Source of the DNA: a virus
IMG/VR virus record: IMGVR_UViG_3300028840_008153
Location: 1 to 64,000 of that record
Strand: one strand, 5' to 3'
DNA length: 64,000 nucleotides
The position numbers and the translations under genes were made by a program. A model generated the notes under the pieces. That model saw only the letters and a list, made by a program, of their open reading frames with translations. It was not told the DNA's origin and did not search any database. How positions within the stretch are numbered: the first letter of the stretch is position 1; each line of letters opens with the position of its first letter. This document shows, piece after piece, positions 184 through 6,327 of the stretch.

Positions 184-509
184 TCCTCCTCCCCGAGCGG
201 GTCGTAGCGAATGTCCAGCGTCAGAGCGAATTCAGGGTCCCACCATCCAATGGCCTTCGCATGTAGTATGAAACAGCGCTCGCACGAAACGGCACCACTC
301 TGATCAGCCGGAGCGGTATCGGTTCCCGGGCAGCTTTTACGGTGGGCCGGAATCAGCTTTAGCAGAGTTTCCCTATGCTCCACCCAAAGCGCGGCAAAGC
401 GCTCACGCTCCTCGATGGCCCGACGGCGCTCCTTGCGGCGGCGCTCGTTGATCTCGTTCTGCAGCTCGGCCGTCGTAAAGACTTCAAGCCTTTTTTCCTT
501 CGGTCCCAT
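180..509 (-). CDS. Charged protein with C-terminal Cys/His cluster, 109 aa
   Basis: Function unknown. The N-terminal half is a strongly charged helix (RRRKERRRAIEERERFAA), a likely coiled coil. The C-terminal half contains spaced cysteines and histidines (HRKSC, CERCFILH) that could hold a zinc ion. The ATG at 509 is preferred over an in-frame ATG 33 nt upstream because a GGAGGGGAG ribosome site lies just before it and it forms a TGATG overlap with the upstream stop. Confidence 0.65.
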   Translation of the reverse strand: MGPKEKRLEVFTTAELQNEINERRRKERRRAIEERERFAALWVEHRETLLKLIPAHRKSCPGTDTAPADQSGAVSCERCFILHAKAIGWWDPEFALTLDIRYDPLGEED

Positions 510-913
510 CAGCTCTCCCCTCCAAGTAACCCGTCCACACACTTTTCAGCGCACTCATGACAAATGACGGACTTGATGGGAACATCCTTCTCGCAGCGCT
601 CGCACTTGACCACGACCTCCGCGTCCTCGTGGTCGTCGCCAACGGGGGTATATGTTTGCTCGAAGATGTCGGGGCTACACGGGTAGAGTTCGCCCTTCAC
701 GCCCTTGATAACCCAGTCCCCCTCACGGGCTTTTAGGGGCCCCTCCGGCGTGGGTATGATCAGACCAGCCTCTCCAGTAACCGGATTGGCCACGATCGCC
801 GGTTTGCCATCCTTTAGGCTTCCGGCATCCGTGAACTTGAACACCTCATTAAGGGTGTCGGGCGTCAGCTGTACGGCCTCAACGACCACCGGCTTCTTTC
901 TGAATTTTGGCAT
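509..913 (-). CDS. PGDYG-type phage protein with C-terminal zinc ribbon, 134 aa
   Basis: The start (PKFRKKPVVVEAVQLT) and the central EGDWVIKGVKGELYPCSPDI match a small protein family common in phage genomes, annotated only as PGDYG-domain or conserved hypothetical. The C-terminal 35 residues add two CxxC pairs (CERC, CHEC), a probable zinc ribbon. The ATG at 913 has an AAAGGAAAG ribosome site; earlier in-frame starts would run into the tRNA-like element that ends at 930. Role unknown; family recognition is from motif memory. Confidence 0.75.
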   Translation of the reverse strand: MPKFRKKPVVVEAVQLTPDTLNEVFKFTDAGSLKDGKPAIVANPVTGEAGLIIPTPEGPLKAREGDWVIKGVKGELYPCSPDIFEQTYTPVGDDHEDAEVVVKCERCEKDVPIKSVICHECAEKCVDGLLGGES

Positions 914-929
914 CTTCTTTCCTTTCTGA

Positions 930-1000
930 TGGCACGAGCCGGGATCGAACCGACCAAGCACGTCCACCGCTGTGCTTTCAGGCGCCGCTGCCCTCGTGCC
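930..1000 (-). tRNA. tRNA-like element, anticodon arm non-canonical (type unassigned)
   Basis: On the minus strand a perfect 7-bp acceptor stem (GGCACGA/TCGTGCC) encloses a good T arm (stem GTCGG/CCGGC, loop TTCGATC) and a one-base discriminator A; CCA is not encoded. Only 39 nt lie between acceptor and T arm. They can form a weak 3-bp D stem (CAG/CTG) and a 6-bp stem (AAGCAC/GTGCTT) closing a 10-nt loop instead of 7. No anticodon can be assigned. The element sits in the operon, abutting the stop codon of the gene before it and 17 nt ahead of the next ATG. Confidence 0.5.
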
Positions 1001-1222
1001 TCAAGTCCAGGGTTTGTTGGGAATCAGCCCGTTCAGGGAGTCCTGGTCGGCAGCAACCTGGATCTTGACAAGTTCCTGAGTATCCTCCCACGTGAAAGCC
1101 ACCGTGGACTTCCCCCAAAGTTCCGTCTTGTCCTCACACTTCTTCTCCAGGGCGTCGGCGGCCTCGCGCAGCTCCTTGGGTGTGGTGAAGACGGTCAACA
1201 CCCGCTCTTCCCGTATGCTCAT
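1001..1222 (-). CDS. Small hypothetical protein, 73 aa
   Basis: No family recognised. It is a compact, soluble, charged protein with an N-terminal beta-like segment (EERVLTVFTTP) and a helical middle (KELREAADALEKKCE). Its stop codon at 1001-1003 directly touches the 5' end of the tRNA-like element, so processing of that element would separate this message from the genes after it. Confidence 0.6.
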   Translation of the reverse strand: MSIREERVLTVFTTPKELREAADALEKKCEDKTELWGKSTVAFTWEDTQELVKIQVAADQDSLNGLIPNKPWT

Positions 1223-1225
1223 CGT

Positions 1226-1639
1226 TCAGCCCTCGTGTTTTTGGAAAGTCACCTCCGTGCCGGTGATGGCGCTCACCTTATTTATCAAGCGGAGCATGTC
1301 CTCGTTCCGCACATCAAACTCCCACTCGTCATTCGGCAGCGGCATGAGCGAGAAACTGCGTGAGCTGGACACCAACATCATCGCCACGATCATGGCTTCG
1401 TCCTGTCGCTTGATGACGAAGCGCGCCCGATTGTACTTCGGCGGAGGGATGTTCTGGGCCTTTGGCACGTAATCCTGTCTCCGGCCCGTGGGGCTGAGCC
1501 CCTGCCGCTTCAGCTCGCGCCGCAGTTGTTTGTTTTCCTGCTTGAGGTTATGCGCCTCCTCCTTGAACTTCACGGCGTTCGCGTGCGTGCACCAGGCCGC
1601 ATGCATGCTGCCGCCACAGCCGCATTCTGAACAGGCCAT
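1226..1639 (-). CDS. Cys/His N-terminus plus coiled-coil protein, 137 aa
   Basis: The first 20 residues carry a dense metal-binding-like cluster (CSECGCGGSMHAAWCTH), followed by a coiled coil of about 30 residues (KQENKQLRRELKRQ) and a mixed C-terminal domain. The ATG at 1639 overlaps the upstream stop as TGATG; an ATG 3 nt earlier is also possible. The ribosome site AGGAAAGG lies inside the end of the upstream gene. Function unknown. Confidence 0.65.
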   Translation of the reverse strand: MACSECGCGGSMHAAWCTHANAVKFKEEAHNLKQENKQLRRELKRQGLSPTGRRQDYVPKAQNIPPPKYNRARFVIKRQDEAMIVAMMLVSSSRSFSLMPLPNDEWEFDVRNEDMLRLINKVSAITGTEVTFQKHEG

Positions 1640-1779
1640 CAATCGGTTCCTTTCCTGATCTCATCACGGATTTCCATCCACAACGTGCCCAGCATGTTTG
1701 CTCCGTCGTGGTCGGGGCCCCAGCCCCAAAAGTCGTCCCGCCACTTATCGGAGAAATCGTCCCAGCTTCCGCGCGCCAT
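1639..1779 (-). CDS. Very small Trp/Asp-rich protein, 46 aa
   Basis: A 46-codon frame begins with ARGSWDDFSDKWRDDFWG and ends IRKGTD. Its ATG (1777-1779) overlaps the TAA of the upstream gene as TAATG, and its TGA overlaps the next ATG as TGATG, exactly the coupling seen across this operon, which is the main reason to believe it. Without it a 140-nt gap would break the operon. Its C-terminus (RKGTD) matches that of the gene ending at 2150, because both encode the same ribosome-site sequence for the following gene. Function unknown. Confidence 0.6.
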   Translation of the reverse strand: MARGSWDDFSDKWRDDFWGWGPDHDGANMLGTLWMEIRDEIRKGTD

Positions 1780-2692: not shown

Positions 2693-2944
2693 TCCTATTT
2701 CCTCCTGTAACTGGCCGGGCGGGCGGCCAGGCCGACCGTAAGGGAGAACGGCCGGCCGCACGGCCAATGGCCTAAGGGCCTTTAGGGAACAAAACGGAAT
2801 ATTTTATCAAGAGTTGGCGCAAATTATCAGTGAGCCCGATAATTTACCCAACTATGTGCAAATTCCGTTTTGTTTCCTTAATAAGCTATCTGTGAAGGGC
2901 CGATCTTGGAACTATGTGCAATTCCACATTGTTCCCTTAATAAG
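2693..2944. repeat. Repeat-rich, AT-richer intergenic region (direct and inverted repeats)
   Basis: This gene-free stretch holds several ordered repeats. A 43-nt unit at 2850-2892 recurs imperfectly at 2910-2951 (60-nt period); both copies start AACTATGTGCAA and end TTAATAAGCTATCTG. A perfect 8-bp inverted repeat AAATTATC/GATAATTT lies at 2821-2845. GGGAACAAAACGGAAT at 2785-2800 is an inverted near-copy of ATTCCGTTTTGTTTCC at 2862-2877. It is AT-richer than its surroundings. It could be a control region or a replication origin; I cannot decide between them. Confidence 0.7.
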
Positions 2945-3163
2945 CTATCTGGCAACTCGCAGGATTTTCCCCGATCCTTGGAAGGCGTCGATCATAGCCT
3001 CCGCATTGGGAAGATCGGTTTCAACTTCCACGAACTCCTTGGCGGGCTTGTCTGGATCGCCGGCGAGCGACCATGGCGCCTCGTAATGGGCCAACCGCAT
3101 CGTTACATCTTCGGCGGCTTCTGGGCTTCTGCACACGAGGCGCACTTTTTTCCTTCTCCCCAT
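2945..3163 (-). CDS. Hypothetical protein, 72 aa
   Basis: A short basic-then-acidic protein (start GRRKKVRLVCRSPEAAEDV) with no recognised family. The ATG has a good GAGGAG site 7 nt upstream. It overlaps the 3' part of the gene that begins at 3344 by 143 nt in another frame. The composition here looks like real protein, whereas the overlapping tail of the 3344 gene is Arg/Ala-rich, as expected for an out-of-frame read. Confidence 0.6.
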   Translation of the reverse strand: MGRRKKVRLVCRSPEAAEDVTMRLAHYEAPWSLAGDPDKPAKEFVEVETDLPNAEAMIDAFQGSGKILRVAR

Positions 3164-4537: not shown

Positions 4538-5113
4538 CTAATCGAACGTGTATCCGAAGTTGCGGATGTCCTCCACGTAACGCTCCTCAACCCAGCGGCG
4601 GGCCTCCGCGTTGTACATCTCCTGGTAGGGCCGGTGGGCCCGCCGCTCCTCGAAGACCTCCTCCGGCACCTCCCGTTCGAGCAACCGACAGATCCAGATC
4701 AGATCCCTATGGAGCGTCTCGAACCGCCCGACATACCGGCACGGAAGAATGAAGTGACTGCAGGGCCGGTGCATGGCCATGCCCTTGGACACGTAATGCG
4801 GCCTGCCGGACGTGTCCGGGCAGTCGTTCTGGAGCCAGTCCATAAACAGGGTCTGATCATCCAGCTGCTCGGCGTTGATGCGCGCACAGATGGACACGAG
4901 ACGATCCCACGGGTTACGAACGAACCCGAAGGTAAACATTCGCCTCCACCGCTCGGTGCCGAAACGCCTGACCAGCCACCACGCGGGCGCGTGCCCGAAG
5001 TAATGCTCTTCGGGGTTGGCTTTCTTGCCCTGATGGGACCGCAGGCCAAGCATGATCGACAGCGACGTGCTCGCCGTCCTCGGAGTACAGAGCATGCACC
5101 AGTCTTTAATCAT
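4538..5113 (-). CDS. Sulfotransferase-family protein, 191 aa
   Basis: Sulfotransferases move sulfate from PAPS to a hydroxyl, often on a sugar. The N-terminal TPRTASTSLSIML fits the PAPS 5'-phosphosulfate loop and FGFVRNPWDRLVS fits the 3'-phosphate-binding motif of the Sulfotransfer_2 type. Histidines between them (EEHYFGH) could act in catalysis. It is short compared with cellular enzymes (about 250 aa or more), so it is a minimal form. AAGGAGAT precedes the ATG, right after the second tRNA-like element. The substrate is unknown; phage or host glycans are plausible. Confidence 0.75.
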   Translation of the reverse strand: MIKDWCMLCTPRTASTSLSIMLGLRSHQGKKANPEEHYFGHAPAWWLVRRFGTERWRRMFTFGFVRNPWDRLVSICARINAEQLDDQTLFMDWLQNDCPDTSGRPHYVSKGMAMHRPCSHFILPCRYVGRFETLHRDLIWICRLLEREVPEEVFEERRAHRPYQEMYNAEARRWVEERYVEDIRNFGYTFD

Positions 5114-5131: not shown

Positions 5132-5207
5132 CCCACGCCGTGGGAGTCGAACCCGCCACAGGAATTTGGCCGCCCACCGCTCACCTGTTCGAGCGGCTCC
5201 GGCGTGG
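5132..5207 (-). tRNA. Second tRNA-like element, anticodon arm non-canonical; overlaps a CDS end
   Basis: The minus strand has a 7- to 8-bp acceptor stem (CCACGCC/GGCGTGG), a 6-bp D stem (CCGCTC/GAGCGG) with a GG-containing 8-nt loop, and a T arm with loop TTCGACT and one mismatch. The 76-nt length is normal, but the anticodon region cannot form a 5-bp stem with a 7-nt loop; the best fold gives 2 bp around CCAAATT, and no anticodon is assignable. The first 27 nt also encode the end of the upstream protein. The next gene's ribosome site follows directly. Confidence 0.5.
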
Positions 5208-5552
5208 GACCGGTTTCTTTTTGCTTCTGAGCGGCTTCATCTCTATCGTGTCGCCAGCTCGGATCTTGTAGCTGCGACTTCGTTTTCTCCCATTCACCCA
5301 GAATCGAACTTCCTCCAGCGGCGAGCAGTTCGCAAACTCTCGTATGACGTCTATGGCCTCAAACTTGGCTAAAGGCGCCCCGATGAGCTTCGGACTCTGA
5401 ATGGTTATCATGTTGAACCGAAACTTAAACAGGACGCCGCCGTAATCCTTCAGCATGGCCATCCGCGCTTCCTCTTGCGCTTGTAGGTCTTTCACGTAGG
5501 TAGTGATAACCCTCAGCGCCTGATCTATCGCCACGCCATCTACCATGCTCAC
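5181..5552 (-). CDS. Small basic-tailed protein, paralogue of the upstream gene, 123 aa
   Basis: The C-terminal half (FWVNGRKRSRSYKIRAGDTI) matches that of the 115-aa gene just upstream (RVNGRVRQTHYVVKAGDTV), and both share an N-terminal helical domain, so the two are tandem duplicates. The VNGR...AGDTVEV pattern recalls small RNA-binding (S4-like) folds, but this is tentative. GTG at 5552 is preferred because AGGAGG lies 5 nt upstream; an ATG lies at 5546. The last nine codons run into the tRNA-like element. Confidence 0.6.
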   Translation of the reverse strand: MSMVDGVAIDQALRVITTYVKDLQAQEEARMAMLKDYGGVLFKFRFNMITIQSPKLIGAPLAKFEAIDVIREFANCSPLEEVRFWVNGRKRSRSYKIRAGDTIEMKPLRSKKKPVPRRSRSNR

Positions 5553-5896
5553 GCGTGCCTCCTGCTGTAGGGCCTGATCACTTCCACGGTGTCGCCAGCC
5601 TTGACCACGTAGTGGGTCTGCCTCACCCTGCCGTTCACCCGGAAGCGGTAATGCTTCGGTCGTTCCGCAGCGATGATCCGCCCGGCACTCGTGCGCCAGA
5701 AGCTGGACAGGCGCGTCCCGACGAGCTTCCCGCCGTTCAACGTGAGCGTGTTGTTCCGAAACCGCACGGTCACCGCGTTGTATGCCTTCAGGATCTTGGC
5801 TTCCGCCTTCTCTGCCGCCTTGGTATCGTCCACGTACTGGCCGATTGCCATCAGGGCCTGCTGCATGGTCATGTAATCAGTCGTGTTCTCGCTCAT
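5549..5896 (-). CDS. Paralogue of the downstream gene, 115 aa
   Basis: Begins SENTTDYMTMQQALMAIGQY and ends with the shared HYVVKAGDTVEVI segment. The middle (VRFRNNTLTLNGGKLVGTRL) aligns by eye with FKFRFNMITIQSPKLIGAPL of its neighbour. The ATG at 5896 overlaps the methyltransferase stop (ATGA) with a GGGAGAGAG site. Function unknown; the duplication suggests a paired or dosage-related role. Confidence 0.65.
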   Translation of the reverse strand: MSENTTDYMTMQQALMAIGQYVDDTKAAEKAEAKILKAYNAVTVRFRNNTLTLNGGKLVGTRLSSFWRTSAGRIIAAERPKHYRFRVNGRVRQTHYVVKAGDTVEVIRPYSRRHA

Positions 5897-6327
5897 GTCT
5901 CTCTCCCTATCACGTAGGTCTCGTATCTGCAGTTTCTCCACAGGCGCGGCTCATCGAGAACCACCTCGATTTGATACCCCCATGAAGTCTTCCTCCACCC
6001 CCGGATGTCACGACGCACGGTCACGTACGACTTGCCTCCAGGCGCCAAAAGCTCCCTGATCTCCTCGATAACTTGTGCACGGTCCCAAGGGAGCCAGATC
6101 GTGTTGAGGACATACGTGCACGTTATGGTGTCGAATGTGCCTTCGGGCTTGGTGGGAAACGAGACGCTGTCGTACTTCTCGGCACCGACGATGTCGGCGT
6201 CCTCGCCTCGTCCACACCCGAAGTCCAGGATTCTGCCTACAACCAGTTCGGCTTCACAAAGCCTTCTCATGGGGGCGGACAGCCCCCCACGCCTGATCGC
6301 CGATCGGTGGAACCGACGGGCGCTCAT
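5893..6327 (-). CDS. SAM-dependent methyltransferase (class I), 144 aa
   Basis: Motif I ILDFGCGRGEDADIVGA, an acidic strand FDTITCTYVLNTI and LLAPGGKSYVTVRRD are the ordered hallmarks of a class I Rossmann methyltransferase. At 144 aa it is compact and lacks an obvious target-recognition domain, so the substrate (DNA, protein, sugar or small molecule) cannot be named. It overlaps both neighbours by ATGA. Confidence 0.8.
   Translation of the reverse strand: MSARRFHRSAIRRGGLSAPMRRLCEAELVVGRILDFGCGRGEDADIVGAEKYDSVSFPTKPEGTFDTITCTYVLNTIWLPWDRAQVIEEIRELLAPGGKSYVTVRRDIRGWRKTSWGYQIEVVLDEPRLWRNCRYETYVIGRET

What the first reader, a model, noticed from the sequence alone, without database searches (positions are those of the whole stretch)
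930..1000. tRNA-like element without a normal anticodon arm, inside an operon
The acceptor and T arms are near perfect, but the middle is too short and closes a 10-nt loop. It sits between a stop codon it touches and the ribosome site of the next gene. It may be an RNase P/Z processing signal for the polycistronic message, a decoy for tRNA enzymes, or a decayed tRNA.
Basis: seen in the sequence. Interest (0 to 1): 0.6.

Follow-up and report, generated by a model that had tools for sequence, protein, structure and literature searches.

The report
Anticodon-less tRNA mimics between phage genes
A large uncultured phage carries, between two genes of an operon, a small RNA element that folds like a transfer RNA but has no anticodon; a second one lies nearby and relatives of the phage carry others, five of the seven in the same kind of gene gap, so this looks like a recurring part that may mark where the shared message is cut, rather than one broken tRNA.

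Summary
Window 931-1000 (minus strand) is a 70-nt tRNA-like element A: 7/7 Watson-Crick acceptor, 5/5 T stem with canonical T loop, a D-like arm, and a 6-bp/10-nt hairpin instead of an anticodon arm. It abuts the stop codon of one gene and ends 17 nt before the next ATG. ARAGORN and Rfam gathering cut-offs see nothing; simulated genomes gave no equal (0 of 40). It is not unique. The same 163-kb phage has a second element (B, 5133-5207). The nearest relative found (sheath 67%) has a B homologue at A's position, directly upstream of the same gene, 86% identical over 59 nt although synonymous sites are saturated, with one compensatory acceptor change. Another close relative has a near-perfect tRNA whose anticodon loop is a UUCG tetraloop; it too abuts a TGA and ends 18 nt before the next ATG. 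Three more relatives carry further anticodon-less or deformed elements. Most likely these are selected tRNA mimics embedded in operons, cut by RNase P and 3' tRNA nucleases. The class is well supported; the mechanism is inferred. A decayed tRNA remains the main rival for A alone, because A has no sequence homologue.

The parts
931..1000 (-). Element A: anticodon-less tRNA-like element (70 nt)
   Evidence: Fold; chance test 0 of 40 simulated genomes; position
994..1000 (-). A, 5' acceptor strand GGCACGA (pairs with 931-937)
980..993 (-). A, D-like arm GGGC-AGCGGC-GCCU
956..977 (-). A, 6-bp hairpin with 10-nt D-loop-like loop (962-971) in place of the anticodon arm
   Evidence: resemblance to a D loop read by eye
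938..954 (-). A, T arm, 5 bp, loop UUCGAUC
931..937 (-). A, 3' acceptor strand UCGUGCC; next base A930 would be the discriminator, no CCA encoded
1001..1222 (-). Upstream ORF (73 aa); its UGA (1001-1003) touches element A and can pair with UCA 927-929
   Evidence: no homologue found
509..913 (-). Downstream gene, PGDYG-like (134 aa), start 17 nt after A
   Evidence: (PGDYG below cut-off)
5133..5207 (-). Element B: second anticodon-less tRNA-like element; acceptor can extend to 9 bp (5132-5208)
   Evidence: tRNA-Sec E 0.0075; homologue in G007, 86% over 59 nt
5181..5552 (-). ORF upstream of B; its stop codon lies inside B
4538..5113 (-). Sulfotransferase gene downstream of B, start 18-19 nt after B

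Best explanation
Element A is a real tRNA-like structure, probably tRNA-derived, that cannot decode. It belongs to a recurring set of anticodon-less tRNA-like RNAs in one lineage of large tailed phages. Shown: an intact acceptor/T half beyond chance; a second element in the same phage; a conserved counterpart at the same gene in the nearest relative found; placement just before the next gene's ribosome site in five of the seven elements (A, B, C, G025, G003), directly at the preceding stop codon in two of these. Inferred: the acceptor/T half makes the message a substrate for RNase P at the 5' end (for A, just after the stop codon) and for RNase Z or 3' exonucleases at the other end, so the polycistronic transcript is cut into separate messages; a small tRNA mimic that anticodon nucleases could not cut would be released as by-product or second function.
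For: Chance test: none like A in 40 simulated genomes. Second element B. B homologue C in G007 upstream of the PGDYG-like gene, where A sits in the window; 86% identity against 45-52% at third codon positions; compensatory A-U to G-C in the acceptor. tRNA-Sec model, not used to find C, ranks C first in G007. G025: near-perfect tRNA with a UUCG-capped hairpin for an anticodon arm, 0 nt from the stop and 18 nt from the next ATG. G003: 3 nt from the stop, 18 nt from the ATG. G002 and G008: further deformed elements. RNase P cuts polycistronic mRNAs and a phage antisense precursor (PMC11143913).
Against: A has no sequence homologue, so its conservation rests on position. No transcript data. G002 and G008 elements are not placed just before a gene. 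Only intact acceptor/T arms were searched for, which biases towards such elements. Closeness of B and C could partly reflect transfer between phages. Two ordinary tRNAs in G009 also lie 19-20 nt before a start, so the position alone is not specific.
Confidence: 0.45

Rival explanations
1. A is a former phage tRNA that lost its anticodon arm by deletion or recombination and is decaying without function; unrelated tRNAs decay likewise in relatives.
For: Ordinary tRNAs occur in the same lineage. The G002 element resembles the tRNA(UCA) of G013 in its acceptor and T arm, and the G003 element looks like a long-variable-arm tRNA with a shrunken anticodon arm. A has no sequence homologue.
Against: B/C are conserved at 86% where synonymous sites are saturated. 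A UUCG-capped stem in an otherwise near-perfect tRNA does not look like decay. All stems of A's acceptor and T arm are intact. The rate of uncalled elements in other phages is low (0 of 6; 5 of 57, most with an anticodon-like loop by eye).
Confidence: 0.25
2. The elements act in trans as tRNA mimics or decoys, for example occupying tRNA-cutting defence nucleases or cargo of the phage's Ro60 particle, and the operon position is only a convenient place for expression.
For: No anticodon to cut; [quoted passage not shown] The phage encodes Ro60 and Y-RNA-like repeats, and G008 and G010 have Ro60 homologues.
Against: No Ro-binding motif was seen in A or B. Tight placement between stop codon and ribosome site in five of the seven elements suggests a role in the message. 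G007 and G025, which have such elements, gave no Ro60 match.
Confidence: 0.2
3. Cis-acting structure without cleavage: the stem that can include the stop codon, and the T-loop fold, set translation of the downstream gene or protect the message.
For: UGA can pair with UCA downstream in A and, by inspection, in G025; elements lie 17-20 nt before the start codon.
Against: A simple hairpin would do; it does not explain a canonical T loop and D-like loops.
Confidence: 0.08
4. Chance resemblance in GC-rich DNA.
For: GC 60%; looser criteria do give chance hits, 0.15 to 0.8 per simulated genome; folding energy is unremarkable.
Against: None of A's quality in 40 simulated genomes; counterpart at the same gene in G007.
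Confidence: 0.02

Closest known systems
Canonical tRNA (RF00005)
   Same: Acceptor stem, T arm and D-like arm; canonical tRNAs occur in the same phages and are the likely source
   Different: No 5-bp/7-nt anticodon arm and no normal variable region, so it cannot read a codon; not called by ARAGORN or RF00005
tRNA-like domain of tmRNA
   Same: Acceptor and T arm kept, anticodon arm replaced
   Different: No tag-coding part; acceptor pair 3-70 is C-G, not the G-U of alanine identity (identity rule from general knowledge); no tmRNA model match
YrlA-type Y RNA tRNA-like module
   Same: tRNA mimic without decoding function, in a phage that also has Ro60 and Y-RNA-like repeats
   Different: No Ro-binding stem motif seen; lies in an operon about 7 kb or more from the Y RNAs if the record is circular, at the other end if linear
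RNase P sites in polycistronic bacterial mRNAs and phage C4 RNA precursor (PMC11143913)
   Same: Proposed mode of action: RNase P cuts a non-tRNA message
   Different: Here a nearly complete tRNA-like fold sits between stop codon and ribosome site and recurs in relatives; cleavage not shown
Mitochondrial tRNA punctuation
   Same: tRNA shapes between genes mark where the message is cut
   Different: There the elements are working tRNAs; here the element has no anticodon

Membership tests
canonical tRNA | 7-bp acceptor and 5-bp T arm with T-loop consensus | tested here: met
   7/7 and 5/5
canonical tRNA | anticodon arm of 5 bp with 7-nt loop | tested here: not met
   6-bp stem, 10-nt loop; ARAGORN none
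canonical tRNA | score above the tRNA model's cut-off | tested here: not met
   No RF00005 match to A at E<=10
tRNA-Sec | score above 47 bits | tested here: not met
   18.6 bits for A, 21.3 for B
tmRNA | match to a tmRNA model with tag-coding part | tested here: not met
   No tmRNA from ARAGORN or Rfam in the window
Y RNA (YrlA/YrlB) | match to the Y RNA models | tested here: not met
   No YrlA/YrlB match at A or B; matches only beside the Ro60 gene, below cut-off
recurrent anticodon-less tRNA-like class proposed here | counterpart in a related phage at an operon gap | tested here: met
   C in G007 at the same gene; G025 and G003 at other genes
recurrent anticodon-less tRNA-like class proposed here | base-pair covariation in A itself | tested here: inconclusive
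   No sequence homologue of A was found; only B/C give one compensatory change
RNase P / RNase Z processing element | cleavage at both ends | not testable with these tools
   Needs RNA end mapping or in-vitro cleavage

The most novel reading that the evidence does not exclude
A lineage of large phages uses a structurally diverse set of anticodon-less tRNA mimics (hairpin, possible pseudoknot and UUCG-capped versions) as excisable operon punctuation that also yields stable tRNA mimics which anticodon nucleases cannot cut.
Probability: 0.35. Interest if true: 0.8.

Novelty: new variant of a known kind. Interest (0 to 1): 0.6.

Why it matters
tRNA-shaped elements without an anticodon, kept between genes of several related phages, would show that phages use the tRNA-processing machinery for something other than decoding. 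They are invisible to standard tRNA finders, so they may be overlooked elsewhere. If they are also released as tRNA mimics they would bear on how phages withstand tRNA-cutting defences.

Tried and rejected
Exact T-arm pattern in viral contigs: none. Pattern with A's acceptor and T loop: two hits, about what chance gives; by inspection neither looks like a tRNA. Homologues of the upstream 73-aa ORF: none. PGDYG-gene relatives in general viral contigs: distant, no such elements near them. Blastn of A against phages: chance only. Blastn of B led to Salmonella phage PhiSH19 (E 0.9), a different RNA region kept as an aside. Bacterial genomes: no sheath relative. Portal-like protein query: nothing. 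Local alignment of A with tRNAs from the loci held at that point: only the T arm stands out. Search for a pseudoknot like that of B and C in all loci held at that point: only B and C looked convincing by eye.

Full report
What is there. The window is the first 64 kb of a 163-kb virus record, GC 60%, with a sheath-like gene and a Ro60 gene in the rest of the record: a large tailed phage. On the minus strand, 1000-931, lies a 70-nt element whose predicted fold is a cloverleaf: acceptor 7/7, T arm 5/5 with a canonical T loop, a D-like arm, and a 6-bp hairpin with a 10-nt loop where the anticodon arm should be. The loop AGCGGUGGAC reads like a D loop. The variable region is one base. It cannot decode. 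ARAGORN and Rfam cut-offs miss it; the only relevant family at low score is tRNA-Sec.

Is it chance? Overall stability is not unusual (z -0.2 to -0.8), so a test specific to the tRNA signature was made. T stem 5/5 with the T-loop consensus and a fully Watson-Crick acceptor never appeared in 40 simulated genomes; T 4/5 with the same acceptor appeared at 0.025 per genome. The real genome has one of each: A and B. The reversed genome had none. With looser rules chance hits do appear.

Place. The UGA of a 73-aa ORF ends at 1001, so the element starts at the very next base; the next gene, PGDYG-like, starts 17 nt after the element. Homologues of that gene begin at the same Met. The UGA can pair with UCA 927-929 and extend the acceptor helix around one bulged base.

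Relatives. Queries with the sheath protein found 30 contigs of one lineage. In the nearest, G007 (67% sheath identity), a relative of B (called C here) sits directly upstream of the PGDYG-like gene, where A sits in the window; in the window B lies upstream of the sulfotransferase gene instead. B and C are 86% identical over 59 nt although third codon positions of the two gene pairs tested agree only 45-52%. Both can form a 9-bp acceptor with a compensatory A-U to G-C change, a 3-bp T stem and a potential H-type pseudoknot with identical stems CCGCU/AGCGG and ACAGG/CCUGU. The pseudoknot is inferred from sequence only: its stems do not vary, so nothing speaks for it by covariation, and a nested fold has good energy too. 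C's T stem keeps only 3 of 5 pairs, so C would have been missed by the scan; it was found by similarity to B, and the tRNA-Sec model, run later, ranks it first in G007.

G025 (59%) has a near-perfect tRNA (46.8 bits) whose anticodon arm is GCGGCC-UUCG-GGCUGU; it abuts the UGA of the previous gene and ends 18 nt before the next ATG, just as A does. G003 has a 100-nt form whose anticodon arm is gone or replaced by a long hairpin, 3 nt after a stop and 18 nt before a start. G002 has a 119-nt form with a hairpin inserted in the D loop and no proper anticodon arm. G008 has a 69-nt form following a terminator-like hairpin; neither of these two lies just before a gene. Of the ordinary tRNAs in these phages that were placed, most lie further from the next start or have none near, but two in G009 lie 19-20 nt before one. 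In about 0.58 Mb of other phage DNA six tRNAs were found and no uncalled element; in tRNA-rich phages 52 were called and 5 were not, most of the latter still with an anticodon-like loop by eye. The anticodon status of the elements was judged by eye from the folds, not by a blind rule.

Mechanism. Shown: structure beyond chance, recurrence, position, conservation of B/C. Inferred: RNase P and 3' tRNA nucleases cut the message at these elements, separating the flanking messages and releasing an anticodon-less tRNA mimic. RNase P is known to cut polycistronic mRNAs and a phage antisense precursor (PMC11143913). [quoted passage not shown] The phage also has Ro60 and Y-RNA-like repeats; phage TROVE proteins (PMC7824862) and Y RNAs in mycobacteriophages (cited in PMC12282133) are already known.

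Limits. A itself has no sequence homologue, so its conservation rests on position. The scan required intact acceptor and T arms and is biased towards such elements. Transfer between phages could explain part of the closeness of B and C. No expression data were available. Sixteen genomes of the lineage were read, as separate stretches, some without their last few kilobases, so elements there or spanning stretch ends may be missed. The paper library holds only open-licence papers, so absence of a precedent is not proof of novelty.

Noticed in passing
G000 (the window's record) about 156660-157160, and 153.0-153.4 kb; locus L086: A Ro60/TROVE gene (157201-158925) with a tRNA-Met and at least five Y-RNA-like repeats beside it (YrlB 26.9 bits, YrlA 20 bits, below cut-off), and two more copies of the motif about 3.5 kb away; one repeat holds a tRNA-like insert.
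   Followed up: partly
L131:211-665 (Salmonella phage PhiSH19) and L132-L137: ViI-like phages seem to carry an unannotated, divergent tmRNA-like RNA (possible tag ANDNTFLAVA) followed by a hypervariable insert closed by a long perfect stem; in PhiSH19 the insert is itself an anticodon-less tRNA-like element.
   Followed up: partly
L222:4426-4790, L239:1715-2123, L218:15106-15180, L297:1206-1278, L269:10737-10811: Relatives of the window's phage carry tmRNAs (G007, G008) and tRNAs with stop-codon anticodons CUA (G007, G011) and UCA (G013), which hints at stop-codon readthrough or recoding.
   Followed up: no
window 2781-2951: Intergenic region with a 32-nt direct repeat (88%) and inverted copies, possibly phage promoters or operators.
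   Followed up: no
window 1637-1657 and 2148-2168: Nearly identical 21-nt leaders (ribosome site plus start codon) before two unrelated genes.
   Followed up: no
window 5181-5552 and 5549-5902: Two neighbouring, apparently paralogous small proteins; the one upstream of B has a C-terminal extension encoded by the 5' half of element B.
   Followed up: no
L130:4147-4523 (Myxococcus phage Mx1): ARAGORN calls a tmRNA in Mx1 that the record does not annotate; the record instead lists a short Hef-like endonuclease CDS overlapping it.
   Followed up: no
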